A stretch of 41,081 nt of DNA from Verrucomicrobiales bacterium (lineage in GTDB: Bacteria; Verrucomicrobiota; Verrucomicrobiia; Limisphaerales; UBA11320), in NCBI GenBank assembly GCA_016793885.1, contig JAEUHE010000053.1, positions 1 through 41,081 of the forward strand, read 5' to 3'. Each line of letters begins with the position of its first letter. Position 1 is the first letter of the stretch. Of this stretch, positions 1 through 14,635 are shown in pieces. Below the pieces are notes generated by a model. The model was given only the letters and a program-made list of their open reading frames with translations, made no database searches and had not been told where the DNA came from. A program made the translations under genes and the position numbers.

Positions 1-1
1 C

Positions 2-94
2 TGTCGCTGCGGGGGCTCTGCTACGACAGATTACCTTTTGAACTGCGAAGCGAATGATCTGGATGACACTCAGGACTCAGAAGCAATCCTCTGA
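2..94 (+). CDS. C-terminal end of an unidentified cassette gene (partial)
   Basis: The window opens inside a sequence that stays open in frame 2 from base 2 to a TGA at 92-94 and would encode about 30 residues with an acidic tail. Frame 1 also stays open to 57, so the frame is uncertain. The next palindromic attC-like element starts 37 bases downstream, which is where a cassette gene should end. The product is not recognisable. Confidence 0.25.
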   Translation, partial: CRCGGSATTDYLLNCEANDLDDTQDSEAIL

Positions 95-130
95 CACCCT
101 CCCAGCCGAAGGCCTCCGCGTAGCGGCTTC

Positions 131-262
131 GTCCAACCAGCCCGATCGAGGACAACCCCGACCAACCCTGGGATTTGCCCAGCTCGACATGACCATCTCA
201 ACCTTGATCAGACTTGCCGATTGTCACCTTACAGGTCGGGGTGCCTCATCGGGAGATTAGGC
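131..262 (+). repeat. attC-like recombination site, family A copy 1
   Basis: The element begins with GTCCAAC (131-137, fits the attC R'' consensus RYYYAAC) and ends with ATTAGGC (256-262, one mismatch to GTTRRRY). Inner arms pair: ACCCCGACC near the left end with GGTCGGGGT near the right end, and CCCGAT with ATCGGG. The total of about 132 bp is at the long end for attC sites. A close copy lies at 1177-1311. The first base of the right core is A rather than the expected G, so recombination at this copy may be impaired. Confidence 0.65.
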
Positions 263-277
263 CTCTCCTCATACCCT

Positions 278-613
278 ATGTCTGGCGATATTTCCGAACG
301 TGACTGGAAGGTGTTTCGCGAGGTTCACAGGCATGCCTTGGAGCGATTCAGTGCGAGAATTCTTGCTGAGGCTCAGGCAGAGATCAGCCGCCCTGAGAGC
401 ACATCGCATGAGAGATATCTCCGGCTCTACCGACTATTTGAGGAGCGGGATCACGATATTGCACGCGCCTTCAACGATCTGCGTCGCTCGACCGCTCTCA
501 TGCAGCTTGGGATTCTCGACGTCATGGGCCTGGTCACACCCCAGGAGCTTGAGCGCTTTAGTCCAGAGGTTCGCGAGTCGCTGGCGCTGCTCGCCCGATT
601 CCGAAAGGCCTAA
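278..613 (+). CDS. Small soluble cassette protein, function unknown
   Basis: An ORF of 111 residues starting at the ATG (MSGDISERD), 15 bases after the right core of the preceding attC-like element; this position favours 278 over the earlier in-frame start at 221. The protein is charged and predicted mostly helical, with many Arg and Glu and no signal peptide or membrane segment. I do not recognise the family. Its stop codon overlaps the GCCTAAC core of the next attC-like site, the usual compact layout of an integron cassette. Cassette genes of this sort often lack their own promoter; none is evident here. Confidence 0.65.
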   Translation: MSGDISERDWKVFREVHRHALERFSARILAEAQAEISRPESTSHERYLRLYRLFEERDHDIARAFNDLRRSTALMQLGILDVMGLVTPQELERFSPEVRESLALLARFRKA

Positions 614-741
614 CACGTGCGACCGAGTGGGCGGCCTTCAGGTTACGCCATGTCCCCGGCTGGTTTCGGGACTGTGATCTTGGCCTCTCTGCCCATTGTT
701 CCGCATTCGATCGGCCGTCACTCATCTTTGAAGCGTTACCC
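608..741 (+). repeat. attC-like recombination site, family D
   Basis: It begins with GCCTAAC (608-614), a canonical R'' core that overlaps the upstream stop codon, and ends with GTTACCC (735-741) directly abutting the next ATG. Comparing the left end with the reverse complement of the right end shows TAAC conserved in the outer core, and GTGGGCGGCC facing GGCCGTCAC about 29 bases in from each end. The middle (about 75 bases) is unpaired spacer or further stem. It is a single copy in this window, about 134 bp long. Confidence 0.55.
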
Positions 742-1176
742 ATGAAAGTCACGGTCTGGGCAGTCTGTAGATCGGCTCTAATCCTTTGCCTGGCAATCCA
801 ATTGGCGATTCATCGCGTAGCCTCCGTAGAGGAGGCCATGCGCTTTGGAGTGGGTCTCACGACTTGTGCCGTCTGTCTTGCGTTGTTTCAAGGTGGTCTC
901 TGGCTTTTCTGCGACATCGTTACCTTAAGGCGAGGCGGCTGGCTCACCCCTTCGTTCGGCCGAAGTCCATTCGCAGCGGATCAAGGCCCCGGGCTGCATT
1001 TGGGGACCGGAGCTAAGGTGTTAGTTGGGTTCGGATTACTTAAGGTATTGTCCGCCTTCCTCCAGGGGATGCCATCTTTGGTTCTTGGGCTCTGGCTGCT
1101 GTCGGTGGGCGTACTCCTTTGGGGCTGGCAGAAACTTCTTAACCGCCTATTTCGATCCCGGTTTATTCGTCGGTGA
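742..1176 (+). CDS. Small multi-pass membrane protein of a cassette
   Basis: 144 residues. The ATG begins immediately after the right core of the upstream attC-like site, and the TGA is directly followed by the left core of the next one (1177). Hydrophobic stretches fit about four membrane segments: the N-terminal ALILCLAIQLAIH region, the LTTCAVCLALFQGGLWLF region, a third near KVLVGFGLLKVLSAFL, and a fourth near VLGLWLLSVGVLLWGW. A basic C-terminus (RSRFIRR) suggests a cytoplasmic end. I know no specific family for it. Confidence 0.7.
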   Translation: MKVTVWAVCRSALILCLAIQLAIHRVASVEEAMRFGVGLTTCAVCLALFQGGLWLFCDIVTLRRGGWLTPSFGRSPFAADQGPGLHLGTGAKVLVGFGLLKVLSAFLQGMPSLVLGLWLLSVGVLLWGWQKLLNRLFRSRFIRR

Positions 1177-1311
1177 GGCTAACCAGCCCGATCGAGGACA
1201 ACCCCGACCAGCCCCTGGATTTGCCCAGCCCGCCTTGACCATCTCAACCTCTAATGGACTTGCCGATCGTCATCTCACAGGTCGGGGTTTCTCATCGGGA
1301 CGTCGTTGGAC
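1177..1311 (+). repeat. attC-like recombination site, family A copy 2
   Basis: The left core GGCTAAC (1177-1183) has one mismatch to RYYYAAC and touches the preceding stop codon. The right core GTTGGAC (1305-1311) fits GTTRRRY exactly and lies 9 bases before the next ATG. ACCCCGACC pairs with GGTCGGGGT, and CCCGAT with ATCGGG. It is visibly homologous to the element at 131-262 along nearly its whole length, although the flanking genes are unrelated, as expected for shared attC sites between different cassettes. Confidence 0.7.
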
Positions 1312-1320
1312 CGATTTTGG

Positions 1321-1626
1321 ATGATGAAGTTCTGGGCTCGATTCTTTGGCAAGGACTATGGTCCTCCACCAACTCCCGATGAAAGTCACCCTTCAGCTAT
1401 CTGCGGATGCCGGGTGGTGGAGACGCTCTATTCTGCAAGCCGAAGGTCCCGAGTCTTTATCGCTACTGACGACGATCAGTGTTTTCGAGTTTTCTTTGAA
1501 GAGTGGGATGATTCGGACTGGCAGGATGGAGGAAAACCGTTTTGGTATCCACGGCGCACAGGAATAATCACCGACTCGCACGAACGCGCCAAAGTGTGTG
1601 CTTTAGAGTTTCTCCAGGCCACGTGA
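1321..1626 (+). CDS. Small cassette protein, function unknown
   Basis: 101 residues from the ATG at 1321 (MMKFWARFF); a TTG at 1306 lies inside the attC core and is unlikely. The protein is rich in aromatic and acidic residues (FEEWDDSDWQDGG), has no signal peptide or membrane helix, and contains isolated Cys residues (ICGCRV). The family is not recognised. It lies between two attC-like palindromes of different families (A upstream, B downstream), consistent with one complete cassette. Confidence 0.65.
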   Translation: MMKFWARFFGKDYGPPPTPDESHPSAICGCRVVETLYSASRRSRVFIATDDDQCFRVFFEEWDDSDWQDGGKPFWYPRRTGIITDSHERAKVCALEFLQAT

Positions 1627-1649
1627 CCTCCGTCGTTCCAGCCCACTCG

Positions 1650-1759
1650 ATCCAACAGCGCTTAGCCTGCGAGTTTTCTACATGATCACCGTTCTTGCAT
1701 TCCAGGTTTCGCCCGAGTTGGCTCTCGCTTGGCGGGCTGTGGATCAGCGAACGTTAGGG
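1650..1759 (+). repeat. attC-like recombination site, family B copy 1
   Basis: Left core ATCCAAC (1650-1656) fits RYYYAAC; right core GTTAGGG (1753-1759) fits all but the last base of GTTRRRY. GATCCAACAGCGC near the left faces GCGGGCTGTGGATC near the right, an extended inverted match with a small bulge, and CTGCGAG faces CTCTCGC further in. A homologous copy lies at 2637-2748. About 110 bp. Confidence 0.65.
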
Positions 1760-1779
1760 GGCGTTCACGTCTTGCATTC

Positions 1780-2193
1780 ATGAACCCAACCATAATCTGC
1801 GGTGGTTGTTTGTGCGGTTTGGTCCGCTACGAGTCGGCTGGACAGCCTTACAACGTCACGCACTGCCATTGTTCGGATTGTCGTCGGAGCAGTGGCGCGC
1901 CGTTTGTAACGTGGGCATCGTTCCGTCGGAGTGAGTTTCGATTGCTCACTGGACAGCCGCGAGAGTTGGGATGGGCTGGGCGGCTGCGTTCGTTCTGCCC
2001 CCAGTGCGGTACGCCATTGACGTTCATGGCCAGTCCAGAAGCAGGCGAGCTTGATGTTACAGTTTGCAGCTTCGACCATCCTGCGATAGTGACACCAGCC
2101 GACCACACTTGGGTTGATGACCGGCTGCCTTGGATTCGTTTAGCCGATGGTTTACCGACTTATGGACAGAAGCGAGAGACCCACGTCGCCTAA
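1780..2193 (+). CDS. GFA/CENP-V family zinc-binding protein (cassette gene)
   Basis: 137 residues from the ATG at 1780; an earlier in-frame start at 1729 lies inside the attC-like element. The protein shows the whole cysteine pattern of the glutathione-dependent formaldehyde-activating enzyme/CENP-V domain: CGGCLCG near the N-terminus, HCHCSDCRRSSG at about residues 30-41, and FCPQCGTPL at about 80-88, where the Cys residues bind structural and catalytic zinc in known members. Family members are linked to S-(hydroxymethyl)glutathione chemistry, but most are of unproven substrate. The stop codon overlaps the left core of the next attC-like site. It is an intact, confident domain call; the exact substrate is not known. 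Confidence 0.9.
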   Translation: MNPTIICGGCLCGLVRYESAGQPYNVTHCHCSDCRRSSGAPFVTWASFRRSEFRLLTGQPRELGWAGRLRSFCPQCGTPLTFMASPEAGELDVTVCSFDHPAIVTPADHTWVDDRLPWIRLADGLPTYGQKRETHVA

Positions 2194-2313
2194 CGAGAAA
2201 GTCGACCGAACCACCGCCAGCATCGGGATTCCGGGCATGATCACACTCACTACATCCGCCACTTCGTTGAGCGCCTCCGTACGGCGGCGGTCGGTCACGA
2301 CTGGTCGTTCGGC
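2188..2313 (+). repeat. attC-like recombination site, family C copy 1
   Basis: Left core GCCTAAC (2188-2194) is canonical and overlaps the stop codon of the GFA gene. Right core GTTCGGC (2307-2313) has one mismatch to GTTAGGC. CCGAACCACCGCC on the left faces GGCGGCGGTCGG on the right; the outer arms also pair with bulges. A homologous copy lies at 3885-4012 after an unrelated gene; the two share a near-identical stretch around CTTCGTTGAGCGCC. About 126 bp. Confidence 0.65.
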
Positions 2314-2337
2314 TGCGCAATTCACCGCGATTGATTC

Positions 2338-2604
2338 ATGAACTATGGGGCAGAGAACGTGGATTTGCGAGACGTCCGGTTCACTCCGGAGCTCCTGAGC
2401 GCCATCCCTGAGGCGACCGCCCGGATGTATTCGGTGCTCCCAATCGCGGATGCGATTGACGGTCTTGTGATAGCTACGGCGTATCCCTTCAATCTGGAGG
2501 CGATTGACGATCTACACCAGATCGTGGGCAGGGATATCGAAATTCGATGCGCAGATGCGGGCCAGCTTCGTGTTTTCATCAAGAATCATTACGGCGGAGA
2601 TTAG
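2338..2604 (+). CDS. Free-standing GspE/PilB N-terminal (MshEN-like) domain protein
   Basis: 88 residues. The sequence from FTPELLSAIPEATARMYSVLPI through VIATAYPFNLEAIDDL and IEIRCADAGQL to IKNHYGG closely follows the type II secretion/type IV pilus ATPase N-terminal domain (GspE_N): P-x-x-x-A-x-x-x-x-x-LP(I/L), then a short hydrophobic strand, N, D(D/E)L, and a closing YYG-like motif. Here that domain stands alone, with no ATPase following. The N-terminal paired RLG/LxxxQ motifs used by MshEN to bind c-di-GMP are absent, so ligand binding cannot be claimed. It may act as an adaptor to a secretion or pilus ATPase, or have been co-opted by a mobile cassette. Confidence 0.75.
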   Translation: MNYGAENVDLRDVRFTPELLSAIPEATARMYSVLPIADAIDGLVIATAYPFNLEAIDDLHQIVGRDIEIRCADAGQLRVFIKNHYGGD

Positions 2605-2636
2605 CTGTGACTAGTCCATCGCCGAACCGCTACTCG

Positions 2637-2748
2637 ATCCAACAGCCCTCAGCCTCCGAGTTTTTCACATGATCACCGTTCCTGCATCTCAGATTCCGCC
2701 TGAGTTGGCTCCCGGTCGGCGGCCTGTGGCTCAGTGGATTCGTTCGAC
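2637..2748 (+). repeat. attC-like recombination site, family B copy 2
   Basis: Left core ATCCAAC (2637-2643) matches RYYYAAC; right core GTTCGAC (2742-2748) has one mismatch to GTTRRRY. It is about 80% identical by eye to 1650-1759 over its full length, including the shared CATGATCACCGTT segment in the centre. Arms around CAACAGCCC and GGCCTGTGG face each other. Confidence 0.6.
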
Positions 2749-2754
2749 AACGGA

Positions 2755-2948
2755 ATGATCCAAGTCTGCTGGAAAACGATTCGTGGGTTCGCAACGCTAG
2801 GCGTGCTGCTCTGGTTTGTCGTGCTTGCGTTGATGCCCGTCTATGGCTGATTCCGCTCTTTATCCTCTGGATTCTTGCCGGCTTGTTCACCGTGTGGAAG
2901 GTCCGTTGGTGGTGCGCAATGAAGAGCCGAACAAACTCAGTCGACTGA
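2755..2948 (+). pseudogene. Small two-helix membrane protein gene, apparently frameshifted
   Basis: An ATG at 2755, 6 bases after the attC-like right core, opens a frame for 31 residues (one hydrophobic helix around GVLLWFVVLAL) and stops at TGA 2848-2850. The sequence then stays open in another frame to the TGA at 2946-2948, encoding a second convincing membrane helix (LWLIPLFILWILAGLFTVW) followed by a basic tail. Joining the two would give a protein of about 64 residues typical of small membrane cassette genes. The break may be a true mutation or a sequencing error. The second frame is also open upstream but has no standard start. Confidence 0.4.
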
Positions 2949-2991
2949 ACCTTCGCTAGCGCGCCGGGCACTCACCTCGAAAACGTTGGGC
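2926..2991 (+). repeat. Possible short attC-like site (family E)
   Basis: GTTGGGC (2985-2991) is an exact GTTRRRY core located 10 bases before the next ATG. A possible partner GCCGAAC (2926-2932) is one base away from its reverse complement GCCCAAC. The 66-bp length is close to the classical 59-base-element size. The inner arms are poorly paired, so only the right core is well supported. Confidence 0.35.
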
Positions 2992-3001
2992 GTATTGAGC
3001 C

Positions 3002-3349
3002 ATGAATTCCGATGCACTTTCTCGTCAAGTCATGAGGCTCGCACAGCGCAAAAGCCGGAAGGTCGGACGAGTGTTGACTCGTGAGGAGATTCTTCGATTA
3101 CATGTTCAGACAGTGGAGCCTTGGAAGCGCATTCTCATTTTTGCGATGGGACTCTTAGTCGGCGCCTTCTCGTTTCTATGCTTTCGCGTGGGAGCACCTG
3201 TTTGGATTTGGGTGGGGTTCGCTTTGTGTTCTGCAGTTATCGTTCTCTGCGGAGCGTTCGGTCGCAAGGCGTATCTCGATCGTGAGCTTCAGAAAATGAA
3301 GGATGAAGGAGCGACGAGATTGCTGGATGCGATCATCAACGGATTGTGA
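3002..3349 (+). CDS. Small two-helix membrane protein of a cassette
   Basis: 115 residues from ATG 3002. The N-terminal 40 residues are basic and probably cytoplasmic (RLAQRKSRKVGR), followed by two hydrophobic helices (ILIFAMGLLVGAFSFLCF and VWIWVGFALCSAVIVLC) and a charged helical tail ending in LLDAIINGL, so both ends are predicted cytoplasmic. No family is recognised. It is flanked by GTTRRRY cores (2985 upstream, 3450 downstream), which frame it as a cassette. Confidence 0.65.
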   Translation: MNSDALSRQVMRLAQRKSRKVGRVLTREEILRLHVQTVEPWKRILIFAMGLLVGAFSFLCFRVGAPVWIWVGFALCSAVIVLCGAFGRKAYLDRELQKMKDEGATRLLDAIINGL

Positions 3350-3352
3350 GGC

Positions 3353-3456
3353 GTCGACAATGTCGTTCATCCGGGAGGGTTCTGGGCGTAAGTTCATATC
3401 ATGAAAGTTCTTAGGTATACCCCATACCGGCGCGTCCCTGAGTGGTTTCGTTGGAC
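3353..3456 (+). repeat. Possible attC-like site (family F)
   Basis: GTTGGAC (3450-3456) is an exact GTTRRRY core placed 4 bases before the ATG at 3461. The left boundary is unclear; GTCGACA at 3353-3359, just after the stop codon of the previous gene, is a weak match to the reverse complement GTCCAAC. Arm pairing is poor. The main support is the repeated layout of the array and the perfect right core. Confidence 0.35.
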
Positions 3457-3460
3457 GTCT

Positions 3461-3868
3461 ATGCGCATCTTACCTTATCTGGCAGTTCTTTGCCTGGCGC
3501 TCACGGGGTGCCAGTTTACTCCGTCACCCACCAGGCAGCCTGTTACCACGAACGATGTGATCGGCGTGTGGTCGTTCACTGAGGACTACTCCAAGACCAC
3601 GGTATTCCTGACGTTCATGCCATCAGGAGTTTTCACTCAGCAGGTTGTTGCCACCACACAAACGAACACCGGGGTTGGCAATTGGACGTTGGATGGACCG
3701 AATTTGCAGCTCACAGGTTTTTTGGCGCAGACCGGCTTCGGATGGAAGCCCGATTCGATACGCTGGTATTTCATCGATGGCGACAAAAGGAAGTTGGAGA
3801 TTTTCGGTGGCGCGTTTCCGGATCCGGACGCTTTCCAGCACTTGAGCTATTTGAGAGCGGCACCATGA
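3461..3868 (+). CDS. Small predicted outer-surface lipoprotein of a cassette
   Basis: 135 residues. The ATG at 3461 gives a textbook lipoprotein signal: MRILPYLAVLCLALTGC with lipobox LTGC, Cys at residue 17. An earlier in-frame ATG at 3401 would add 20 basic residues, but the attC-like right core at 3450-3456 falls between the two, which settles the start at 3461. The mature part (VIGVWSFTEDYSKTTVFLTFMPSGVFTQQV, then a GNWTLDGPNLQLTG motif) resembles the lipocalin-like beta-strand domains of small secreted proteins that begin with a G-x-W motif. The function is unknown. Confidence 0.75.
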   Translation: MRILPYLAVLCLALTGCQFTPSPTRQPVTTNDVIGVWSFTEDYSKTTVFLTFMPSGVFTQQVVATTQTNTGVGNWTLDGPNLQLTGFLAQTGFGWKPDSIRWYFIDGDKRKLEIFGGAFPDPDAFQHLSYLRAAP

Positions 3869-3884
3869 CACATCACGATCGGAC

Positions 3885-4012
3885 GTCCAACGAGTTCGTG
3901 GATCGAACCACCGTCCGCATCCGGAGTGCTGACACTAGTATCATCACTACACCATCTACTTCGTTGAGCGCCTTCCTACGGCGGAGGTCGCTCACGGTTG
4001 GTCGTCGGTGGG
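3885..4012 (+). repeat. attC-like recombination site, family C copy 2
   Basis: Left core GTCCAAC (3885-3891) matches RYYYAAC and lies 16 bases after the stop codon. The element is homologous to 2188-2313 throughout (CGAACCACCG on the left, CTTCGTTGAGCGCC in the middle, GGCGGAGGTCG on the right). The right core is degenerate: GTTGGTC at 3997-4003 or the aligned CGTCGGTG near 4004-4010. It ends just before the ATG at 4014. Confidence 0.6.
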
Positions 4013-4013
4013 C

Positions 4014-4442
4014 ATGAAGCGCGTTTGGCTTTCGGATTGTCGGTCGCTCATCCATCTCCTGGTCCTTGGATTAATACGAAGCATGTCGACACGGTGGACA
4101 TCGAGCGGCGATCAGGAACACCCCACTCCCCAACACCTTGTGCGAGCGATCCTGGCTCATCTCATCGAGGCGGCTGATAGTTCTTCTTGGGCTCACTTCG
4201 AGGTCATTGCGCAGGAAGGGTGGTATAGAAATCTGCTGTGGGGCAAGGAGCCATGGGTTGAAGTTGCATACGTGGACCACGGTTGGTTGCAACTCATGGA
4301 TCTGAGGCCAGCTTTTGGCGGACCTGACTTTTGTCGAAGCTCGCCGTGTGCCTCTTTCGCTCCTCCTTCCTTCGACGCAAGCCACGCCTATCCAAGTTAT
4401 TGCGCATCGCGACCGATTATTTCATACGTACGTATGAAATAA
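4014..4442 (+). pseudogene. Frameshifted cassette gene of unknown function
   Basis: The ATG at 4014 (or 4083, MSTRWTSSG) opens a frame running to TAA 4440-4442. The first part to about 4305 looks like a real protein (HLVRAILAHLIEAADSSSWA, EVAYVDHGWLQLMDL). After that the annotated frame becomes Ser/Pro/Cys-rich, while the neighbouring frame gives a much more natural sequence (LLADLTFVEARR, then IQVIAHRDRLFHTYV). A one-base slip near 4305 therefore seems to have broken the gene. The tail runs into a perfect palindrome (4413-4446). The family is not recognised. Confidence 0.5.
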
Positions 4443-4446
4443 TCGG
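4413..4446. repeat. 34-bp perfect palindrome centred on TACGTACGTA
   Basis: Each 17-base arm is the exact reverse complement of the other, with the axis between 4429 and 4430; the core is CATACGTACGTATG. A second, partly degraded copy lies at 4584-4615. It could be a dimeric operator, a cruciform or the scar of a mobile element. It is not followed by a T-run, so it is not a typical terminator. Confidence 0.8.
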
Positions 4447-4449
4447 GAA

Positions 4450-4874
4450 ATGGTTACTCCTGATTCACAGTGTGCAGCCCTGCTGAGAACGCTATTCTGG
4501 CTCTGGCTGACGGCTTTGCGCTTCGGCATCGATGTTCATGCTGTCGCTGATCTGGTGCCTGAGGACAAGTTTCGGCCGCTACAGATTAAACTATACGTAC
4601 GTATGGAACAATCCGTCGGGGGACACTTGGGTGTCTGAAGCAGGGCTCGTTCCCAATAACAATCGGCTGGTTGACGTCAGCGCGATACGCGATACGTGAA
4701 ATGAGGCTGCTGGGGGAACTGCAGCTGAGCGGTAGTCAAATTACTCGACTGACCCTTCCACCCTCACTCGGGGCCTTACAGGTACTGGATCTGAGCGCGA
4801 ATCCACTCACCCGATTCGTGCTCTGGGAGCCACTGGCTGGGAAATGGCAACGAAGCACCGAATTTATGCCATGA
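4450..4874 (+). pseudogene. Leucine-rich-repeat protein remnant split over three frames
   Basis: Three overlapping frames each carry a plausible piece. 4450-4600 encodes a hydrophobic N-terminal part ending FRPLQIKLYV. The next frame encodes WNNPSGDTWVSEAG then VPNNNRLVDVSAIR. 4671-4874 encodes LRR-like text (LLGELQLSGSQITRLTL, then LQVLDLSANPLTRFVL). The frames are rejoined exactly if one copy of the tandem ACGT at 4595-4602 and one copy of the tandem GCGATAC at 4682-4695 are removed. The product would be about 137 residues. It is therefore either a gene inactivated by two short tandem duplications or one affected by assembly errors. Confidence 0.5.
4584..4615. repeat. Second, degraded copy of the TACGTACGTA palindrome
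   Basis: Aligned without gaps to 4415-4446, 25 of 32 positions match, including the complete 12-base core ATACGTACGTAT at 4593-4604. The arms no longer pair fully. The copies are about 170 bp apart and lie within decayed coding sequence. Confidence 0.6.
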
Positions 4875-5680: not shown

Positions 5681-8347
5681 ATGTCGAAATCAATCTGCAA
5701 TGGGATAAGCAGGCCTAGTCGGCCATGGCATGGCTTGATCCTGGCTTTCATGGTTCATCTCGAGCTCGCGGCGCAGTTTTACGCGCCGCGCACGGAAGAG
5801 CACGATCCGGCCCAACGCTTTTTTCTGACCGAGGTATGTCGGCTTCTGGCCTGGCGTGAGAATGGATCCGAATCCAAACTCGCCACGATCACGAACTCGG
5901 TTTATCCCCTGCGCACCGGTGGTGTCGATTGGCACCTCAAGTTCCTTTCTCCCTCCGGAAGTCTCTCCAAGACCGGGCTCGTGAGCTATTCCACGAACCT
6001 GCTGGAGCAGGGGGATGGATACTATCGCGAGGTGTATCGGAAGGTTCAGGCGCTTGGCTGGGCACCTGTTCCTAAGGCCCTGCCCGAGGAGATACGAAAA
6101 GCCTATTGGCGCGGGGCCTTGCGAGCGAAGGTGTCGCGCGAGGAGAGTCTGGCTGAGGGCTTTGGGATGGTGACCAAAGGGGGTCAGGCATGGGGGGCAA
6201 TCGAGGCGGCAGAACTCTCGGGGTTGCTGACCCATGCGGTGCTTCCTGGAGTGGCGGGGCGGGCCAGCATTGACTCTGTTCTCCTGGCCCGAGCATTTGG
6301 CTGGCTAGCGTTTGCTGAGGCGGCGAGTTCGGCGTCCCTTGCCGACCTTTACATCCCCGGACTATTCCTCTCCGGGAGAGAGCGAATCGCGCGCTCGATG
6401 TGGAAAGAGGCTGCCTCCAAGGGGCTGGTCCCGCCGAATGCGCTCACGTCGGCCTGGGGGGTCTGGCTTGGTCAAACCAAGTCGCGTCCATTCTATCAGT
6501 CCGCCGTCACGAACCGCTATTTGCCCATGCTGATGCCGATGTTGGTGTACGATGAACTGGTGAACAGCAGCGGAAATCTGCTTGAGGAGTTTCTTCCCGC
6601 CCTGGTGGATGCCAAGAACGCCATGTCGCTTCACAACTTTGGTCCGTTTCTCTCGACCCAGATGGGTGTCGGGGCTGGCCATTTTATGGACGGAGGGTGG
6701 CCCGAACTTCAGCGCGCCGCGTGGCTGCGCTTGATCCAAAGCCGGCCAGCCGAGTTCTTTGGGCCGACCAACTTCAGCTCTGCATTGAAGCAGAGTGTGG
6801 CTGCACGTCAGGCAGCGGGCGCTTCCAAAACGGCGGCGGACCAGAGTATTCCCGGGCTTAGGGAGCTCGCCCCGCTCCTTCGGCTTGGTCAGATCGAAGG
6901 GGTGGGTCCCCTGGCACCTACCGCAGTCGCGACCGATCGCGATCTTCTCAACTACGGATGGGAAGCGGCAGGTTTGCAGATGGGAGCCCGCTATCAATTC
7001 GTAAATCACCGGTGGGGAGTCCATGAGGTCGGCAAATCCATTCGCCAGGCCGCTCGCACTGCCGCGGAAGGCTGGACGCCGTTTTTCGAGAACGAGCGGG
7101 CGTCCAAAGTGGCGAACTATGACGCCAGCCTTCGTCGGCTGGAGCTCGTCGAAGGGCTGTTCCAGTTGGTCGGATTCAACCGTCATGCCTATGCCGATGC
7201 GGGGCCTGAGAACCCCAGATCCGCCCAGCGATTTGTCCGCCGCGCTTACCTTCGTCCCTGGGACGCGGAGTGGCAGTGGCGAACTCTCTTTGATGGAGGC
7301 GACAGCGTTTCGAATATTGTTCCTCATTTGCGGTGGATGGCCAATGAGGCTGGACCCCGGGGATTGGTGGTGGGGTTGCGCTATCTGGCATCAGTCGGTG
7401 TTCAAGGGGTTCAGGAGCTGCCGGGAGCGCTGGCGGCACGTGGCGAACTAGCCGAGCGGCTGCCTCAAAAAACCGAGTTATACCTGGAGACTCGCGCTCT
7501 GGTTCCGACGAACTTTGTGGTCGCTGGGGAGGTGAAAACCGTGGACCAACAGCGACTGGACCAGGCGAGGGAATTGGAACGGATGTATTGGGACACCGAT
7601 ACTGAGGAGCTGGGGCGTCGAACCTTGGATGCCTATCTGCTGGCGGACGCCTACCCGTCCACCGTGCGTTTCTACAGTCAGATTCGCACCAACCTGACCG
7701 ATACCATCTCCTTCTCGCATCGACTCGGACAAAGCCTTTTCCTCCTCGGCTACTTTCAAACCAATGACCTTCTGCAGTCCTGGGCGGTCGAGAACAGTCG
7801 ATCCGGCAGCAGCTCGGATCTGCAACTGGGGATTTACCGTGCGGCAGCCAAGAATGACCGGAAAGCCCTCGCGGCCGCAGTCCAGGACTACATCGAGCGC
7901 TATGGATCAGATACCGGACCCGATGATCCACTCCAGAAGCTGCAAGGCTTCCTCCCATTGCTCCCGGCTCTCTCCGATCCGAAGAGCCCCAAATACACCG
8001 AGGCTTTGGAATATTTTTCGGGGTCAGATCGGTGGTCGATCTTGCGCTGGATGTGGGTTCGGCGGTTCGAACTTCCTCAGGAAGATGCCATCACATTTCT
8101 GGGAGGCCGGGAGAATGAGCCGTTCCTAGGTTTCCTGGTTCAATTGCTGCTGAAAGATCAGGAGGCCATGGAGAGGATGGTCAGAGCCTATTTTGGAAAT
8201 CCGAGGAATCTTGAGGTCGGCCGTTCCTTCGTCATTCGTTATCTTTACGCGCAGCACGCCCAGAAGAAGCCAACGATTCCTGATGAGAATATGCGTCCTG
8301 CGCAAGCCAAGACGCTCCGCCAGGAAATCGCCGAGTGGCTGCGGTGA
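5681..8347 (+). CDS. Large exported helical protein of unknown function
   Basis: 888 residues. The N-terminus has a basic stretch followed by HGLILAFMVHLELAAQ, a probable signal peptide with cleavage around residue 32. The mature protein is rich in Leu, Ala, Arg and Trp, with alternating helical segments (for example LRRLELVEGLFQLVGFNRHAY and LQSWAVENSRSGSSS) that suggest an alpha-solenoid or TPR-like scaffold, but no regular repeat or catalytic motif is visible. The C-terminus is basic and helical (AKTLRQEIAEWLR). It is a single gene, convergent with the chemoreceptor fusion. Most likely a periplasmic or outer-membrane-associated lineage-specific protein. Confidence 0.7.
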   Translation: MSKSICNGISRPSRPWHGLILAFMVHLELAAQFYAPRTEEHDPAQRFFLTEVCRLLAWRENGSESKLATITNSVYPLRTGGVDWHLKFLSPSGSLSKTGLVSYSTNLLEQGDGYYREVYRKVQALGWAPVPKALPEEIRKAYWRGALRAKVSREESLAEGFGMVTKGGQAWGAIEAAELSGLLTHAVLPGVAGRASIDSVLLARAFGWLAFAEAASSASLADLYIPGLFLSGRERIARSMWKEAASKGLVPPNALTSAWGVWLGQTKSRPFYQSAVTNRYLPMLMPMLVYDELVNSSGNLLEEFLPALVDAKNAMSLHNFGPFLSTQMGVGAGHFMDGGWPELQRAAWLRLIQSRPAEFFGPTNFSSALKQSVAARQAAGASKTAADQSIPGLRELAPLLRLGQIEGVGPLAPTAVATDRDLLNYGWEAAGLQMGARYQFVNHRWGVHEVGKSIRQAARTAAEGWTPFFENERASKVANYDASLRRLELVEGLFQLVGFNRHAYADAGPENPRSAQRFVRRAYLRPWDAEWQWRTLFDGGDSVSNIVPHLRWMANEAGPRGLVVGLRYLASVGVQGVQELPGALAARGELAERLPQKTELYLETRALVPTNFVVAGEVKTVDQQRLDQARELERMYWDTDTEELGRRTLDAYLLADAYPSTVRFYSQIRTNLTDTISFSHRLGQSLFLLGYFQTNDLLQSWAVENSRSGSSSDLQLGIYRAAAKNDRKALAAAVQDYIERYGSDTGPDDPLQKLQGFLPLLPALSDPKSPKYTEALEYFSGSDRWSILRWMWVRRFELPQEDAITFLGGRENEPFLGFLVQLLLKDQEAMERMVRAYFGNPRNLEVGRSFVIRYLYAQHAQKKPTIPDENMRPAQAKTLRQEIAEWLR

Positions 8348-8374
8348 AGCGGGAGCTTTGTGGGCCCTTGGCGG

Positions 8375-8424
8375 AGAGCTTTGCGCCGTGTGTCGCCGCC
8401 CGGATGCCAGCGAATAGGCCTCGT
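8375..8424. repeat. 50-bp duplication, intergenic copy
   Basis: 46 of 50 bases match 11719-11768 in the same orientation, which is internal to the lipoprotein gene. This copy sits between two convergent genes and does not continue either reading frame. Confidence 0.75.
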
Positions 8425-8432
8425 CAAGGAGG

Positions 8433-11060
8433 TTAAAAGTCCCTGAACTGACCGGGCTGCGCGTGCTTGAGTTCCGAGGGGTTGGGCCGGTCGGGTGCGG
8501 AGCGCGATGCCCTGGGTCCAGGGGCAGTCCCAGATGGTCTTCTCTGGCTGGTTTTGCTGGTGGCACGCGTGGTCAGCTCATCGGTCGCAGTGGAAGAGTG
8601 CGGCTTCGCTCGCTGCCCGGAGGGCGTAGTCCTCCCTCCGACCATAGTCTGGAGATGGGTCACAGCGTCATTGACCGCCTTGGCCTGGGAGCTGAGTTGC
8701 TCGCTGGCGCTGGCGCTTTCCTCAGCGCACGCCGCATTCGCTTGCGTGACCTTGTCCAACTGAGATATCGCGAGGTTGATCTGTTGGATACCGGTGGATT
8801 GTTCAGTCATGGCTGTTGCAATGCCGGCTGCCTGCTCGTCGACCTCCTTCACGCGGCCTACGATCTCTCCTAACGTCTGCCCCACCTCTTGAGCCGCGGT
8901 CGCGACTGTGTCCACGCTCGCGACCACCTTCTCGTTCACAGTGACTCCCTGAGCCGATTGCTGAACAGCTGCCTCGATCAGTACTGCCGTTTCCTTGGCG
9001 GCCGTGGCACTTCGCTGGGCCAAGTTGCGAACCTCGTCCGCAACCACGGCAAATCCCAACCCTGCTTCGCCTGCGCGTGCAGCCTCGACCGCGGCGTTGA
9101 GCGCGAGAATATTGGTTTGGAAGGCGATTTCGTCGATGGTTTTGATGATTTTGGAGACATTCAAGCTGGAAGCTCGGATACCCTCCACCGCGGTTCGCAT
9201 TTCGCCCGCAGCGGACCGAATCGTATCCAGCGACTCGTTCAGCCGCTGGTTGGATTGAACCCCCGAGTCGGCTGACACCTTCGTGGCCGCGGCCAAATCC
9301 TTGGTAGCCTTGGCGGAATCCGCGCTCCGCTTTACCATGCTGGCGATTTCCTCGAGTGCTGCGCTGGTCTCCTCCAAAGAAGCTGCTTGTTGGCTGGCTC
9401 CCCCGGCCAGGGTCTGGCTGGCGGACGCCACTTGTGCTGAGGCGGCGGCCGTCTGTTCCGCGCCGGCGAGAAGTTCGGAGGCGATCTCGCGCAGGGGTGG
9501 GACGATGGATCGGCTGATAACCCAGGTTAGGAACGCACCCAACGCTAGCGCGGCGATCCCGATACTAACGATCGCTGCTTGGGCTTCGGTCATCTGCCGT
9601 TGCATGCGCGGCCCGGCTTCGTTCTGATCCGCCAGAAACGCCGCTTCCAAGCCTTCCATTTCCTCTTCGATCAAAGTTCCGAGTTCGCCCATCTGGCGGT
9701 TGATACGAGTTGCCTCGGCATTCTTGCCGGCGAACGCGAAGGTCTTCAGCTCCTTCAGCAGACCGGCATGGACCTCAACTTGAGATTCGATCGTTTTGAT
9801 CGTTTTATGACGATCGGGCTCGGTGATCTGTTCCTCGATCTCATCCAGTGCTTCCCTGAGGAGTTGGCTGTGGGACTCGTAGCGGTTCAGCGTTTCCTGA
9901 CTGCGGGCCAGCATCAGATCCTTGGCTGCGATTTGCATGAGCAGAAACTGTTCGAGAACGGCAGCTCCCTCATTGCTATGCCGAGCATCCGTTCGGAATT
10001 CCTTGAAGCCTTCGAGTGCGGTGTGGAGGCCTTCATATCCCGCGAAGCCCACTCCGGCGAGCACCGCGAGCAGGGCGGCGAATCCAAGCGAGATTCGCTG
10101 GGGAACCCGCCATCGCGGCAACACCGAGTTGGCGAACCACCAGGCGGCGGCCATGAGCAGGAGTAAAGCACTGGCTGTCCCAAGGACCCAATGCATCACC
10201 CGGGCTTCGGCCGGTGCGGCGCTGGGCGTGGTGCGAGCGTGTGTGTTAGCTTCTGCGCCGGAGACGCCTGCTTCCTTCGCTTGATGCGGCGCGTGGGGAG
10301 CTATTTCTGAATGACCCGACTCCGCCTGATGTTGGTTCCCGCTGGTGTACGAGAGCAGTCGCGATTGCTCCTGGTGCTCGCCAAGCCAGGTCACCGTTCC
10401 TGATTGGAGATCATAAATTGCGCCCATCACTTTGAGCCGGCCTGCTTGGACCAGCGATCGAACTTCAGGACTTCGCTTGAACAGGTCATCGATGGAGATC
10501 CAAATATTGGCTTGGACTGCTTCGAGCATCAAGGCCTCACCCACCAGGCTTGGGCTGACTGATTTGGCCCGGGCGGCGGCTGGAGCGATGTTGTCGACCA
10601 GGGAGGGGATGCTTCCGTGGACTTCGGCTCCCTCGACCACTGCTTTTACGGCGCCGCATGAGGTATGGCCCATCACTATCAAGAGCGGGGTCTTCAGGTG
10701 TCCCACGCCATACTCTATGGTGCCCACTTCATCCGTGTCCGAGACATTGCCCGCCACCCGGATCACGAAAAGGTCACCCAGCCCTTGATCCAGAATCAAC
10801 TCGGGTGCAAGTCTTGAATCCGAGCAGGTCAGGATGGTTGCAAACGGAGTCTGGCCGGTCGCCAGGGCCGCACGGCGGGCGGAGTCCTGGTTTGGATGTA
10901 GTGGCTTGCCTGCTACATAGCGCGAGTTACCCTCGGCGAGACGCTGGCGCGCCTGGTCCACCGTGATACCACTATCCACTGATGCCTGCGCGATCGAGCT
11001 AAAGCCCTGGGCCAGCAGGGTTACGAGCATAACTGCCAGTGTCCTAAGGAGTGCGTTCAT
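8433..11060 (-). CDS. Periplasmic beta-carbonic anhydrase fused to a methyl-accepting chemotaxis protein
   Basis: 875 residues with a signal peptide at about 1-27. Residues 30-230 form a complete beta-class carbonic anhydrase: C79-S-D81-S-R83 and H132-T-S-C135 supply the zinc ligands (C79, H132, C135) and the Asp-Arg dyad. A His-rich flexible linker (about 235-288) precedes a hydrophobic segment at 290-312 and another at 323-345. Residues 346-495 are a helical bundle of the ligand-binding type, 496-518 a third membrane helix, and about 540-805 the MCP signalling coiled coil with its hairpin tip ([20 protein letters not shown], 644-663). Three membrane spans place both the anhydrase and the helical bundle in the periplasm and the signalling domain in the cytoplasm. 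No clear HAMP is seen. A GGGGAGGGG ribosome site lies upstream. The likely role is a receptor whose input is linked to CO2, bicarbonate or pH. No che genes lie in the window. Confidence 0.93.
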
Positions 11061-11203
11061 GTTTTGGTTTTCCCCTCCCCTTCTAGCGGCAGTTTTTAGG
11101 CCTTCTGTAGAGGATTCTCGGGAAAACCAACGGAGCCTTGCCCTACCGCTGTGACGTTATACCGCCGTTATTGGCCCAGGCAGCGGCATTCACCACAGTG
11201 AAG

Positions 11204-12394
11204 TCAGATGGGCTTTCGGCCCTCGGAGCTCCGTTTGAGCGCGAAATTCAGCACGATCAGTGCGGCCCCTCCGCCGAGGGCGAGCCACAGCAGGGAACGC
11301 GCTTGTGCTGCCACGACAGCCGCTGATTTGTCCGCAGCCTCACGAACCTGGTCCGGACGGGTCATGGTGGCCAGTTGGCTCAACTGATGGCTGAGGTTGG
11401 TGACTGAACGTTCCAGGATCAGCACGCTCGACTCCAGCGCCTGCACCCTCCGTCCCGCCTGTTCCACCTGCCCGAGCGCCGCGGACACCTCAGCCCGGGC
11501 GGCCACACTTTCTGCCAGCTCCCGCGGCAGAGCAGCCAATCGGTCTTCAATCCGCTTAACCTGCTCAGGCACGATCCGTTGCAGGGCGCCCAGCTCCTGC
11601 AGGGACGCCATCGCCTGACTCACCTCCCCATGTCCGAGCAGATTGGCGGCAGCTGACTCCGCATGCCATTCGGTGAGGCGGGGAATGCGGCTGGCCAGAA
11701 AAATAGCCCGCTCCCCCAAGAGCTGTGCGTCGTGTGTCGCCGCCCGGATGCGTGCGAATAGGCCTCGTTCGGTCGCGCTTCCTCCGGCCAGTGTGGTCGC
11801 CAGCTCCTTCGCGAATGCGTCGAAACGGATGAACTCCGAGACCGCCGGTCCCGGATGGTTTTGGCGCCAGGTCCGGACGGTCTGCTCCACTTCGCGTATC
11901 TCGTCCGCTGACAGGTAACGCTCCGAATGCGTCCGGATGTGATGCTGGATCCCTTCGAAGGCGGAATCGATTTCCGGGGCGTGCGAGCCGAACTCCCGAG
12001 TCGACCGGGCTTCGGTAATCCAAATCTGATGCGAGAGCGCGGCCATGGCGAGGAGGTCCAGAACCTGGACCAGAGCGTTGGGGCCCGCGACGATCGCATA
12101 GCTGGAAGTCGCGTAGGCAGCCTTCAATCGCAGCGCCTCCTTGCGTGCCGCAGAACTTTCACTCGCCGCCGCCACCCGATTGCAGGCAGCTGCCAGGCGG
12201 GCCACCTGCCATTCCACCAACGCTTCATTCTCTACCATAAGCTGGGCCATGGCGTGCGACGAGGCGTCGGCGGGCGCTCGAGAGCTGGGGGCGGTGGCGG
12301 TCGAGGCTTCCGAGGGTGAAGATAGGGAAGCCGGAGTGCGGCAGCCTTGGACGAGAAGAGCCGGCAACAGTAGCAGCAAGGGACGGGTCAGCAT
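11204..12394 (-). CDS. Helical membrane-anchored lipoprotein, possible partner of the chemoreceptor fusion
   Basis: 396 residues from the ATG at 12394, chosen because it gives a clean lipoprotein signal (MLTRPLLLLLPALLVQGC, lipobox LVQGC); the longer start at 12475 would bury it. The mature protein begins with a Ser/Thr/Ala-rich linker, then long helices with coiled-coil character (around ALESSVLILERSVTNLSHQL), and ends with a membrane helix (LLWLALGGGAALIVLNFAL) and a short basic tail. It is thus anchored both by lipid and by a C-terminal helix. It lies 143 bp upstream of the carbonic anhydrase-MCP gene on the same strand and may be cotranscribed. The function is unknown; a periplasmic sensor or scaffold is inferred. 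Confidence 0.75.
   Translation of the reverse strand: MLTRPLLLLLPALLVQGCRTPASLSSPSEASTATAPSSRAPADASSHAMAQLMVENEALVEWQVARLAAACNRVAAASESSAARKEALRLKAAYATSSYAIVAGPNALVQVLDLLAMAALSHQIWITEARSTREFGSHAPEIDSAFEGIQHHIRTHSERYLSADEIREVEQTVRTWRQNHPGPAVSEFIRFDAFAKELATTLAGGSATERGLFARIRAATHDAQLLGERAIFLASRIPRLTEWHAESAAANLLGHGEVSQAMASLQELGALQRIVPEQVKRIEDRLAALPRELAESVAARAEVSAALGQVEQAGRRVQALESSVLILERSVTNLSHQLSQLATMTRPDQVREAADKSAAVVAAQARSLLWLALGGGAALIVLNFALKRSSEGRKPI
11719..11768. repeat. 50-bp duplication, coding copy
   Basis: This copy lies inside the lipoprotein gene and encodes, on the minus strand, part of the segment RGLFARIRAATHDAQ. It matches the intergenic copy at 8375-8424 at 46 of 50 positions. Because it is in frame in a coherent protein, it is likely the source copy. 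Confidence 0.75.
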
Positions 12395-12504
12395 GTCGAC
12401 ACCCATTGGGTGGGCCGTACTTTGGCTGTGGGCCTGACTAAGTTCAAGTCCGCCTTGCTGAAAAGGGGGTGACATCCGGGCCGGAACCGATTTAGCTCTT
12501 CAGC

Positions 12505-13356
12505 ATGTCGCAGACGACTTTGACTTTAGGGCACTCTCCGGATCCGGATGATGCTTTCATGTTTTACGGGCTGGCCAAGGGGCTGGTCCCGTCGAACGGC
12601 TTTGAGTTTGAACATATTCTCCAGGATATTCAGACCCTGAACGAGCGGGCCACCCGCGGCGAGTTGGATATTTCGGCAGTGAGCATTCATGCCTACGCCT
12701 ACTTGTCGGACAAGTACGTGCTGCTGCCCAGCGGGGCGAGCATGGGAGATGGCTACGGGCCGATGCTGGTGTCCCGCGCTGCCCACTCGCGTGAAGAGGT
12801 GATCCGACGGCGGATCGCGGTGCCGGGGACCATGACGAGCGCCTTCCTGGCCCTCCAGCTGTGGGCCGGCAAGGGAGCCAGCGAGCTGGACTATATCGTA
12901 GTCCCGTTTGACCAAATCTTTTCGGCAGTGAAGTCGGGCCAGGCGGACATCGGCCTGATCATCCACGAGGGCCAGCTGACCTACCAAAATGAGGGGCTGC
13001 AGGTCTGTGCGGATTTGGGAGCGTGGTGGAAGCAGAACCAGGATGGTCTTCCCCTTCCGCTCGGCGGTAACGTCATTCATCGTCGTTTCGCCCCACCGGT
13101 GCGCAAAGCGATCTCCGATATTCTAACCGCCAGCATCCAATACAGTTTGGATCATCGTCCGGAGGCGGTTCGGCACGCGCTGCAGTACGCTCGTGATATG
13201 GGAGTCGAACTCGCCGATCGGTTCGTCGGGATGTATGTGAACCATTGGACTCTCGACTATGGAGACGCGGGACGGGAGTCCATCCGCCGTTTTCTGGGAC
13301 AGGCGTTTGAGCGGGGGTATCTAAGCAAGAAGGCGGAGCTGGAGTTCGTCGCATGA
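12505..13356 (+). CDS. mqnD: 1,4-dihydroxy-6-naphthoate synthase (futalosine menaquinone pathway)
   Basis: 283 residues. It follows the MqnD family closely: SPDPDDAFMFYGL near the N-terminus, then the motif around ILQDIQTLNERA, GPMLVSR, IIHEGQLTYQNEGLQ and DLGAWWKQ, with GLPLPLGGN after it. MqnD converts cyclic dehypoxanthine futalosine into 1,4-dihydroxy-6-naphthoate using a periplasmic-binding-protein-like fold; it acts in the cytoplasm. MqnA is a relative, but the IIHEGQLTY and DLGAWW motifs point to MqnD. The stop overlaps the dxr start by four bases (ATGA), so the two are translationally coupled. No other mqn gene is present in the window. Confidence 0.95.
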   Translation: MSQTTLTLGHSPDPDDAFMFYGLAKGLVPSNGFEFEHILQDIQTLNERATRGELDISAVSIHAYAYLSDKYVLLPSGASMGDGYGPMLVSRAAHSREEVIRRRIAVPGTMTSAFLALQLWAGKGASELDYIVVPFDQIFSAVKSGQADIGLIIHEGQLTYQNEGLQVCADLGAWWKQNQDGLPLPLGGNVIHRRFAPPVRKAISDILTASIQYSLDHRPEAVRHALQYARDMGVELADRFVGMYVNHWTLDYGDAGRESIRRFLGQAFERGYLSKKAELEFVA

Positions 13357-14495
13357 AGAATGTTGTTTTGTTAGGCAGCACCGGATCCATCGGCACCAGT
13401 ACACTCAAGGTGGTGGAGGACCTCCCGGACCGTCTGCGCCTGATCGGATTGGCCGCGGGAAACAACCTCGATCTCCTGATCGAGCAAGTGCGAAGGCACC
13501 AGCCGGCTGCCATCTCGCTGCAGGACCCCGGCAAGGCTCAGCAGGCTCAAACCCTGCTGGGCACATCCACCCAGGTTCACTGCGGTGAGGAGGGCTTGAT
13601 CCGCTTGGCCACCCTGCCGGGCGCCGACATTGTGCTGATTGCCATCGTGGGAACGGCGGGGCTGCAACCCGCGCTGGCTGCCATTCGGGCGGGCAAGGAC
13701 ATCGCCATTGCATCCAAAGAAATTCTCGTCATGGCGGGGGAGACGGTGATGTCCGAGGCCCGGAAACATGGAGTGCAGGTTTTGGCCGTGGACAGCGAAC
13801 ACTCGGCCATCTTTCAATGTCTCGATGGCAAACCGGCGAGTTCGGTGCGCAATCTGTGGCTGACAGCCTCGGGCGGGCCGTTTCGGCGTCTGGATCGAGC
13901 TGAATTCGGAAAGATCACCGTCGAGCAGGCTCTCAAGCATCCCTCGTGGGTCATGGGGCGCAAGATCACCATCGACTCCGCCACCCTTTTTAACAAGGGC
14001 CTGGAGATGATCGAGGCACGCTGGCTCTTCGACGTCGAGATGCCACGGGTGAAGGTGATTGTGCATCCGCAAAGCGTGGTGCATTCCATGGTGGAGTTCG
14101 TGGATGGCTCGATCATCGCCCAGCTCTCCACTCCCGATATGTGCCTGCCCATTCAGTATGCGCTGCTTTATCCGGAGCGGGTGAACAGCGACCGGGTGCA
14201 AACCGACTTTGCGAAGCTGAGCCGGTTGGAATTTGAGGATCCGGATACCGAGCGGTTTCCCGCGTTGAACCTGGCCCGTCGTGCCGGGGAGGTAGGCGGC
14301 ACCCTGCCGGCGGTGTTGAACGCGGCCAATGAGGTGGCGGTGGAGGCTTTTTGTCAGCGTCGCATCGGCTTCGAGGCGATCAGCACCACCGTCAGGCGCA
14401 CCATGGATCGACATCGAGTGGTGGAGAAGCCCAGCCTGCCGCAGATTCTAGAGGCGGATGCTTGGGCGCGCGAGGAGGCGGGCCGGCTAGGATAA
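13353..14495 (+). CDS. dxr: 1-deoxy-D-xylulose 5-phosphate reductoisomerase
   Basis: 380 residues, the usual length. The N-terminal LLGSTGSIGTSTL is the NADPH-binding loop. Conserved active-site segments follow: ASKEILV, VDSEHSAIFQ with the metal-binding Asp and Glu, SGGPFR, HPSWVMGRKITIDSATLFNKGLE, HPQSVVHSMVEF, and a C-terminal NAANEVAVEAF. The enzyme carries out the second step of the MEP isoprenoid pathway (DXP to 2-C-methyl-D-erythritol 4-phosphate). It overlaps mqnD by ATGA. The pairing makes metabolic sense because menaquinone needs an isoprenoid side chain. All expected catalytic motifs are intact. Confidence 0.97.
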   Translation: MKNVVLLGSTGSIGTSTLKVVEDLPDRLRLIGLAAGNNLDLLIEQVRRHQPAAISLQDPGKAQQAQTLLGTSTQVHCGEEGLIRLATLPGADIVLIAIVGTAGLQPALAAIRAGKDIAIASKEILVMAGETVMSEARKHGVQVLAVDSEHSAIFQCLDGKPASSVRNLWLTASGGPFRRLDRAEFGKITVEQALKHPSWVMGRKITIDSATLFNKGLEMIEARWLFDVEMPRVKVIVHPQSVVHSMVEFVDGSIIAQLSTPDMCLPIQYALLYPERVNSDRVQTDFAKLSRLEFEDPDTERFPALNLARRAGEVGGTLPAVLNAANEVAVEAFCQRRIGFEAISTTVRRTMDRHRVVEKPSLPQILEADAWAREEAGRLG

Positions 14496-14507
14496 TCCCA
14501 GCCATTC

Positions 14508-14626
14508 GCATTTTGGATTTTCGATTGGTTTGAACGCGGACGCGGACCTTTCGACTTTGCGCGGGGAAATGACCCTCGTCATCGTCCACGGCAAATCGGA
14601 AATCGCAGATCTAAAATCCAAAATGC
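14508..14626. repeat. Inverted repeat with perfect 14-bp arms upstream of bioF
   Basis: GCATTTTGGATTTT (14508-14521) and its exact reverse complement (14613-14626) flank a 91-bp spacer. The right arm lies 9 bases before the bioF ATG, where no clear ribosome-binding sequence is present. The spacer also carries degenerate repeats such as AAATCGGAAATCGCAGAT. It may be a decayed dispersed repeat or a structure affecting bioF translation. Confidence 0.6.
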
Positions 14627-14635
14627 CGACCCTGC

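What the first reader, a model, noticed from the sequence alone, without database searches (positions are those of the whole stretch)
131..4012. Integron-like gene-cassette array with several attC families and no integrase in view
At least six long imperfect palindromes (131, 608, 1177, 1650, 2188, 2637, 3885) separate short plus-strand genes. Most start with an RYYYAAC core at a stop codon and end with a GTTRRRY-like core just before a start codon. Three families recur after unrelated genes (A, B, C interleaved), which is hard to explain by simple gene duplication but expected of cassette recombination. If confirmed, this is an integron or CALIN in a group where few are described.
Basis: partly seen in the sequence, partly recalled or inferred. 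Interest (0 to 1): 0.85.

Follow-up and report, generated by a model that had tools for sequence, protein, structure and literature searches.

The report
Chromosomal integron gene-cassette array
The first 4 kb of this window is a partly decayed row of integron gene cassettes in a probable Verrucomicrobiota genome that holds about a hundred such recombination sites and an intact integron integrase on another contig, and some of its arrays also carry an unusual mobile element inserted exactly at the recombination sites.

Summary
All seven palindromes are attC-like sites in three interleaved families (A: 131, 1177; C: 1631, 2621; B: 2188, 3885) plus one singleton (608). Relatives recur across the host genome: 105 candidate sites on 17 contigs, the paired arrays in one orientation per contig, and one intact IntI (TIGR02249, 454.6 bits, cut-off 265) on contig C10, next to six sites including families A and B. 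The integron signature is clear. The R'' core of each site matches the core that opens its own cassette: 60 of 88 pairs agree at all four variable positions, against 7.5 expected by shuffling. One cassette occurs in two neighbourhoods with edges exactly at R'. Window sites are weaker: 2 of 7 pass my strict caller and 4 of 7 keep both AAC and GTT, so the window is a decaying array end beside chromosomal metabolic genes. Integrons are already reported from Verrucomicrobiota, so the array is a new member of a known kind. One correction: bases 1-137 are the end of a separate multi-copy element, which supplies the first R'' core. Following it led to IS91-type elements with a tyrosine recombinase sitting at attC R'' cores across the phylum, with two filled/empty pairs in this genome.

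The parts
1..137 (+). End of a multi-copy element abutting attC A1; it supplies the R'' core GTCCAAC (131-137)
   Evidence: Seven contigs begin with it (C53, C244, C106, C26, C1, C210, C63). 3 are followed by an attC (C53, C26, C244), C210 is ambiguous, 3 are not. Last 23 nt are 20/23 like the ter end of IS91-type elements (counted by eye).
131..263 (+). attC family A, copy 1; R' decayed (ATTAGGC)
   Evidence: 94% to a site on C3; bottom-strand fold z -2.99; not called by the strict caller
221..613 (+). Cassette ORF, 130 aa, no Pfam match; stop codon lies inside the R'' core of the next site
608..741 (+). attC-like singleton D (R'' GCCTAAC, R' GTTACCC)
   Evidence: R'' matches the preceding R' 6/7 and its R' matches the next R'' 6/7; fold not better than shuffles
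742..1176 (+). Cassette ORF, 144 aa, no Pfam match
1177..1311 (+). attC family A, copy 2 (GGCTAAC ... GTTGGAC), intact
   Evidence: strict caller score 50; 87% to copy 1
1306..1626 (+). Cassette ORF, 106 aa, no Pfam match
1631..1762 (+). attC family C, copy 1; R'' degenerate, R' GTTAGGG
   Evidence: 84% to copy 2; 37 family-C hits in the genome's fetched contigs
1780..2193 (+). Cassette gene: GFA-domain (glutathione-dependent formaldehyde-activating-like) protein; the scanned frame is 1729-2193
   Evidence: PF04828, E 3.5e-24
2188..2313 (+). attC family B, copy 1 (GCCTAAC ... GTTCGGC), intact
   Evidence: strict caller score 44; 17 family-B hits
2338..2604 (+). Cassette gene: MshEN-domain protein, 88 aa
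   Evidence: PF05157, E 1.3e-16
2621..2748 (+). attC family C, copy 2 (GCCGAAC ... GTTCGAC)
   Evidence: R'' matches the preceding R' 7/7; caller score 35.5, below the strict cut
3002..3349 (+). ORF, 115 aa, no Pfam match; a lost attC may separate it from the next ORF (inference)
3401..3868 (+). Cassette ORF, 155 aa, no Pfam match
3885..4010 (+). attC family B, copy 2; R'' GTCCAAC, R' decayed to GTCGGTG
   Evidence: 75% to copy 1; R'' matches the preceding R' 6/7
4008..4442 (+). ORF after the last recognisable attC; possible remnant cassette
   Evidence: no Pfam match
5681..15883 (.). Chromosomal flank, including an MCP-signalling/carbonic-anhydrase fusion, a menaquinone-biosynthesis gene, DXP reductoisomerase and an aminotransferase

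Best explanation
Window 1 to about 4.4 kb is a chromosomal array of integron gene cassettes without its integrase in view (operationally a CALIN, or the cut distal end of a larger array). Each unit is one small ORF plus one attC. The integron integrase encoded elsewhere in the same genome (contig C10) is expected to fold the bottom strand of attC, cut at the R' core (G|TT), and excise or insert cassettes as circles, preferentially at attI beside intI. Shown: site families, core-matching signature, IntI presence with an adjoining array, and one cassette in two neighbourhoods with edges at R'. Inferred: strand folding, circles, expression, and that the window array was once served by this IntI. 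At least three of seven window sites have lost a core, so much of it is probably immobile now. At its left edge the array is interrupted by the end of a separate multi-copy element.
For: Three interleaved families with 15, 17 and 37 BLAST members in the genome, one orientation per contig. R''(n) versus R'(n-1): mean 6.34 of 7 over 88 pairs, shuffles 5.06, sd 0.083, max 5.41 of 20,000; exact at 4 variable positions 60 of 88 versus 7.5 expected (max 19 of 5,000), but only 10 of 104 within one site. Outside the window 56 of 82 pairs are 7/7. IntI on C10: 454.6 bits, cut-off 265; 0 of 14 control genomes over the cut-off. Six sites follow on C10, the first R'' GCCGAAC matching the attI-side core GTTCGGC at L009 2869-2863. 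A cassette shared by C210 and C244 (421 bp, 95.5%) starts exactly at R' in both and ends at R' in both. In 79 of 88 cassettes the longest ORF is sense to attC; median 126 aa. Structural caller: 0 per 102.8 kb of control. Flank genes are chromosomal.
Against: Only 2 of 7 window sites pass the strict caller; three folds are no better than shuffles; Rfam finds nothing at E up to 1 in 1-6000. Fifteen of 88 core pairs match at fewer than 6 of 7 positions. No direct link between C53 and the intI contig: the window starts at a contig end inside a repeat. The genome is a 274-contig assembly, so strain mixture cannot be excluded. The R''/R' calls of family sites were chosen by a best-match rule near the expected position, which adds some noise; the shuffle control uses the same calls.
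Confidence: 0.94

Rival explanations
1. The palindromes are ordinary dispersed repeats (REP- or MITE-like) that settled between small genes, not recombination sites.
For: They are repeated, palindromic and intergenic; three window folds are unremarkable.
Against: The cassette-specific core matching (60 of 88 exact versus 7.5 expected; 10 of 104 within a site) has no reason to exist for dispersed repeats; intI with an adjoining array of the same families; exact cassette edges at R'.
Confidence: 0.02
2. The window is a stand-alone CALIN at its own chromosomal locus, never contiguous with the intI array on C10; arrays were seeded at several places. (This is a refinement of the best explanation, not an exclusive alternative.)
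For: Array-to-chromosome transitions are seen on several contigs (C53, C24, C26, C244, C264, and C3 probably) with different neighbouring genes (lactate permease, arginine decarboxylase, aminotransferase and others), more than one integron can have.
Against: Several array contigs break at repeats or shared 141-base ends, and large insertions or mixed strains could also create apparent ends.
Confidence: 0.5
3. Tandem gene duplication or rho-independent terminators explain the repeats.
For: Small + strand genes in a row.
Against: Genes beside family copies are unrelated: the 22 Pfam families found among 88 ORFs occur in one member each; no T-tracts at the sites by eye; core matching.
Confidence: 0.01

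Closest known systems
Sedentary chromosomal integrons
   Same: IntI of TIGR02249 type, attI-side core, long one-orientation array of small mostly unknown ORFs with attC sites
   Different: A review states that sedentary integrons tend to have sequence-conserved attC and mobile ones variable attC (PMC8618304, passage); here at least four families (A, B, C and 93-nt F) coexist in the same arrays (B and C were joined into one cluster there by weak matches)
CALIN (cluster of attC lacking integrase)
   Same: Two or more attC and no TIGR02249 hit on this contig
   Different: The left end of the contig is cut, so an integrase further upstream cannot be excluded
attC-targeting IS1111 elements and group IIC-attC introns (for the side finding)
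   Same: Mobile element inserted at an end of attC (IS1111: PMC11187229, passages; introns: PMC7923331, abstract start and passages)
   Different: Here a Y2/IS91 transposase plus a tyrosine recombinase, inserted just 3' of the R'' AAC, which brings its own GTTCAAC core and an attC-like hairpin

Membership tests
Integron (complete) | Integron integrase of the IntI family in the same genome | tested here: met
   G000:C10:3208-4149, 454.6 bits over cut-off 265; on another contig, not in the window
Integron (complete) | attI next to intI | tested here: inconclusive
   Core GTTCGGC at L009 2869-2863 matches R'' of the first attC; no functional or comparative test
Integron cassette array | attC sites with RYYYAAC and GTTRRRY cores and pairing arms | tested here: met
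   105 candidate sites genome-wide; in the window 4 of 7 keep both AAC and GTT, 2 of 7 pass the strict caller
Integron cassette array | Cassette boundaries at R' (R'' pairs with the opening core of its own cassette) | tested here: met
   60 of 88 exact versus 7.5 expected; C210/C244 shared cassette
Integron cassette array | Extrahelical bases on the L'' arm | tested here: met
   Consensus folds of families F and C have one-sided bulges on the 5' arm; families A and B were not aligned
Integron cassette array | Recognition by the IntegronFinder attC covariance model | not testable with these tools
   Model not held; Rfam gave no match
CALIN | At least two attC without a nearby integrase | tested here: met
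   7 sites; no TIGR02249 hit on C53; contig truncated on the left
IS91 family (side element, C262/C215) | Zn_Tnp_IS91 plus Y2_Tnp transposase | tested here: met
   PF14319 and PF04986 (C262 copy); C215 copy 88-89% identical
IS91 family (side element, C262/C215) | Rolling-circle transposition | not testable with these tools
   Needs an assay

The most novel reading that the evidence does not exclude
The arrays of this genome, and integron-like arrays elsewhere in the phylum, host an apparently undescribed group of IS91-type transposons with a tyrosine recombinase that inserts directly 3' of the R'' core of attC. It regenerates that core with its own GTTCAAC end and brings a short attC-like hairpin ending in GTTGAAC, so the insertion leaves a formally valid array with the element as an extra, inverted cassette. 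The window's left 137 bases would be the end of a related element.
Probability: 0.6. Interest if true: 0.66.

Novelty: new member of a known kind. Interest (0 to 1): 0.5.

Why it matters
It places a large integron with about a hundred recombination sites, several coexisting attC families and decaying array ends in a poorly studied probable verrucomicrobial lineage. Families shared with congeners let one ask how new genes acquire attC sites: in congener G004 most family-C sites seen share the same 18-nt insert beside different genes. The IS91-type elements at R'' would add a route by which transposons enter cassette arrays without breaking them.

Tried and rejected
Second integron platform: IntI-like hits on C215 and C262 looked like a second integrase divergent from an array; reading them showed an IS91-type element with its own tyrosine recombinase, so rejected.

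Contig linking: 141-base end overlaps link C105 to C3 but do not connect C53 with C10.

Synteny: the 888-aa flank protein has no match in the four congeners (0 of 4), so no empty chromosomal site could be read for the window array. attC families near other intI: 4 of 80 fetched loci had any hit, mostly partial.

Rfam: no match. A general attC covariance model was not built, because the families do not align to one another. Structure prediction was not used.
Full report
OBSERVATION. The window is contig G000:C53, which begins at base 1. Direct repeats pair 135/1181, 1645/2632 and 2187/3884; with the singleton at 608 these are the seven palindromes reported. Between them lie small + strand ORFs. 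Ten proteins were scanned, seven of them array ORFs: two matched Pfam, a GFA protein (PF04828) and an MshEN-domain protein (PF05157).

THE SITES ACROSS THE GENOME. DNA searches of the host genome (8.70 Mb, 274 contigs, 95.7% complete) with one member of each family found many copies. In the fetched contigs BLAST gave 70 non-overlapping sites: A 15, B 17, C 37, D 1, all on one strand within each contig. A caller that asks for RYYYAAC and GTTRRRY cores and pairing arms scored nothing at 40 or more in 102.8 kb of control sequence (top chance score 39) and 46 of 70 family sites at 40 or more; it also found new interleaved sites, among them a fourth family of 16 sites of 92-94 nt, here called F. 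Total: 105 candidate sites on 17 contigs, including isolated partial ones on C42, C212 and C160.

CORE MATCHING. If these are cassettes, R'' of each attC should pair with the core that opens the same cassette, that is R' of the preceding site, because both were joined in the circle. Over 88 neighbouring pairs the mean match is 6.34 of 7 (shuffled 5.06, sd 0.083). At the four variable positions 60 of 88 are exact (shuffled mean 7.5, maximum 19 of 5,000), whereas R'' and R' of the same site are exact in 10 of 104. Fifteen pairs match at fewer than 6 positions, often beside decayed sites or long gaps. In the window alone the six pairs match 6, 6, 4, 6, 7, 6 (35 of 42; P = 0.010 against the pool; 4 of 720 permutations). 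Outside the window 56 of 82 pairs are 7/7.

CASSETTE MOVEMENT. C210 671-1091 and C244 256-676 are 95.5% identical over 421 bp, start exactly at R' in both and end at R' in both, with different neighbours.

INTEGRASE. TIGR02249 finds one full IntI, C10:3208-4149, 454.6 bits against a cut-off of 265; none of 14 control genomes passes the cut-off. Its ORF is 357 aa with integrase domains. Six sites read away from it on the other strand, in families F, A, A, B and two others. The attI-side core GTTCGGC (L009 2869-2863) matches R'' of the first attC. Relatives of this IntI in named genomes are largely Verrucomicrobia, many called subdivision 3 or Limisphaerales, with Proteobacteria among them (best 66% identity; the best 80 of 161 relatives were kept); from this I infer the host phylum, which no call names. 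Among the five genomes held for its family, all one genus, three have IntI over the cut-off and four have family-C attC.

STRUCTURE. The F consensus (16 sequences) pairs R''/R' and an inner L''/L' stem with one-sided bulges on the 5' arm; few compensatory changes, since the family is 91% identical. Family C (33 of its sites aligned) also has a one-sided base at column 18 of the 5' arm. That canonical attC carries its extrahelical bases on this arm is recalled. Bottom-strand folds of the window sites: z -2.99, +0.56, -1.99, +0.10, -1.33, -0.61, -2.25 in order of position; top strand -2.97, +0.33, -1.55, -0.22, -0.76, -0.51, -1.57.

STATE OF THE WINDOW ARRAY. Only sites 1177 and 2188 pass the strict caller, against 13 of 13 on C30. 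The sites at 131, 1631 and 3885 have lost a core. The right flank is chromosomal (menaquinone biosynthesis, DXP reductoisomerase, aminotransferase). Other contigs also pass from array to distinct chromosomal genes, so several array ends exist; whether they are CALINs, or ends created by insertions or strain mixture, is open.

CASSETTE CONTENT. Of 88 cassettes the longest ORF is sense in 79 and antisense in 9, two of the 88 being the transposase ORFs of the IS91-type element; median 126 aa. A set of 88 ORFs (window ORFs chosen by hand, transposases left out, first C10 cassette added) matched 22 Pfam families, one member each.

LEFT EDGE AND IS91-TYPE ELEMENTS. Window 1-137 is found at the start of seven contigs, on C210 up to base 131 only and on C63 from base 64 only. 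Three are followed by attC (C53, C26, C244), one is ambiguous (C210) and three are followed by other sequence, so that element is not attC-specific; its interior is not in the fetched data. Its end resembles the end of an IS91-type element (PF14319, PF04986, with a PF00589 recombinase) that has two copies in the genome, both inside arrays. For both copies an empty counterpart is assembled: C264 for C262, C214 for C215. The unit sits directly after the AAC of R'' (about 2,643 bp in C262, from coordinates; 2,631 bp in C215), begins with a 66-nt attC-like hairpin ending GTTGAAC and ends with GTTCAAC, which restores R''. In 320 genomes of the order, 15 have relatives, 17 loci. Of these 17, ten, including both own copies, show the GTTCAAC end, each followed by an attC-like arm as judged by eye; in the other seven it was lost, altered or off the contig. 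In 387 genomes of the phylum 10 have relatives; of ten stretches fetched from six of these genomes most show at least one matching end, mostly beside attC-type cores, but none was found by the motif scan in two of them (L292, L293), G590 at L294 7936 is followed by ordinary sequence, and two tandem copies lie in G491. Where an attC could be called beside a copy, the transposase was usually antisense to it. Whether the transposase, the element's recombinase or IntI does the insertion is unknown.

LITERATURE. Integrons are already listed for Verrucomicrobiota, and sedentary arrays are said to tend to conserved attC (PMC8618304, passages). The 11 published taxon models of PMC8352920 include no Verrucomicrobia (passages). 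attC-targeting IS1111 elements are known (PMC11187229, passages). PMC7923331 (passages) and PMC8876359 (passages) mention IS91 but, in what I saw, no IS91 insertion at attC; searches for IS91 with attC (listings only for the rest) showed no title on it. Subscription papers are mostly not covered.

VERDICT. New member of a known kind, with coexisting attC families and an attC-associated IS91-type element as the noteworthy additions.

Noticed in passing
L187 (C262) and L038 (C215); relatives L255-L268, L289-L297: IS91-type element with a tyrosine recombinase sitting at the R'' core of attC, with filled/empty pairs C262/C264 and C215/C214.
   Followed up: partly
G004 loci L213, L215, L216, L217, L214: Family-C attC sites of a congener without a detected IntI share an about 18-nt insert (TTTATCACGT...) beside different genes: a host-specific attC variant.
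   Followed up: partly
window 8433-11060 (-): Predicted fusion of a carbonic anhydrase domain (PF00484) with an MCP signalling domain (PF00015).
   Followed up: no
window 4408-4444 and 4577-4613: Two copies of a CGTACG-centred palindrome just after the array.
   Followed up: no
L009 (C10) 4195-4470: Short tandem repeats directly downstream of intI.
   Followed up: no
G000:C205 4005-6362: Several adjacent tyrosine-recombinase ORFs, possibly a recombinase-trio element (recalled).
   Followed up: no
C10, C210 and C215 contig ends: Three array contigs end in the same attC plus cassette start (R' GTTGGAG), a cassette repeated in the arrays.
   Followed up: partly
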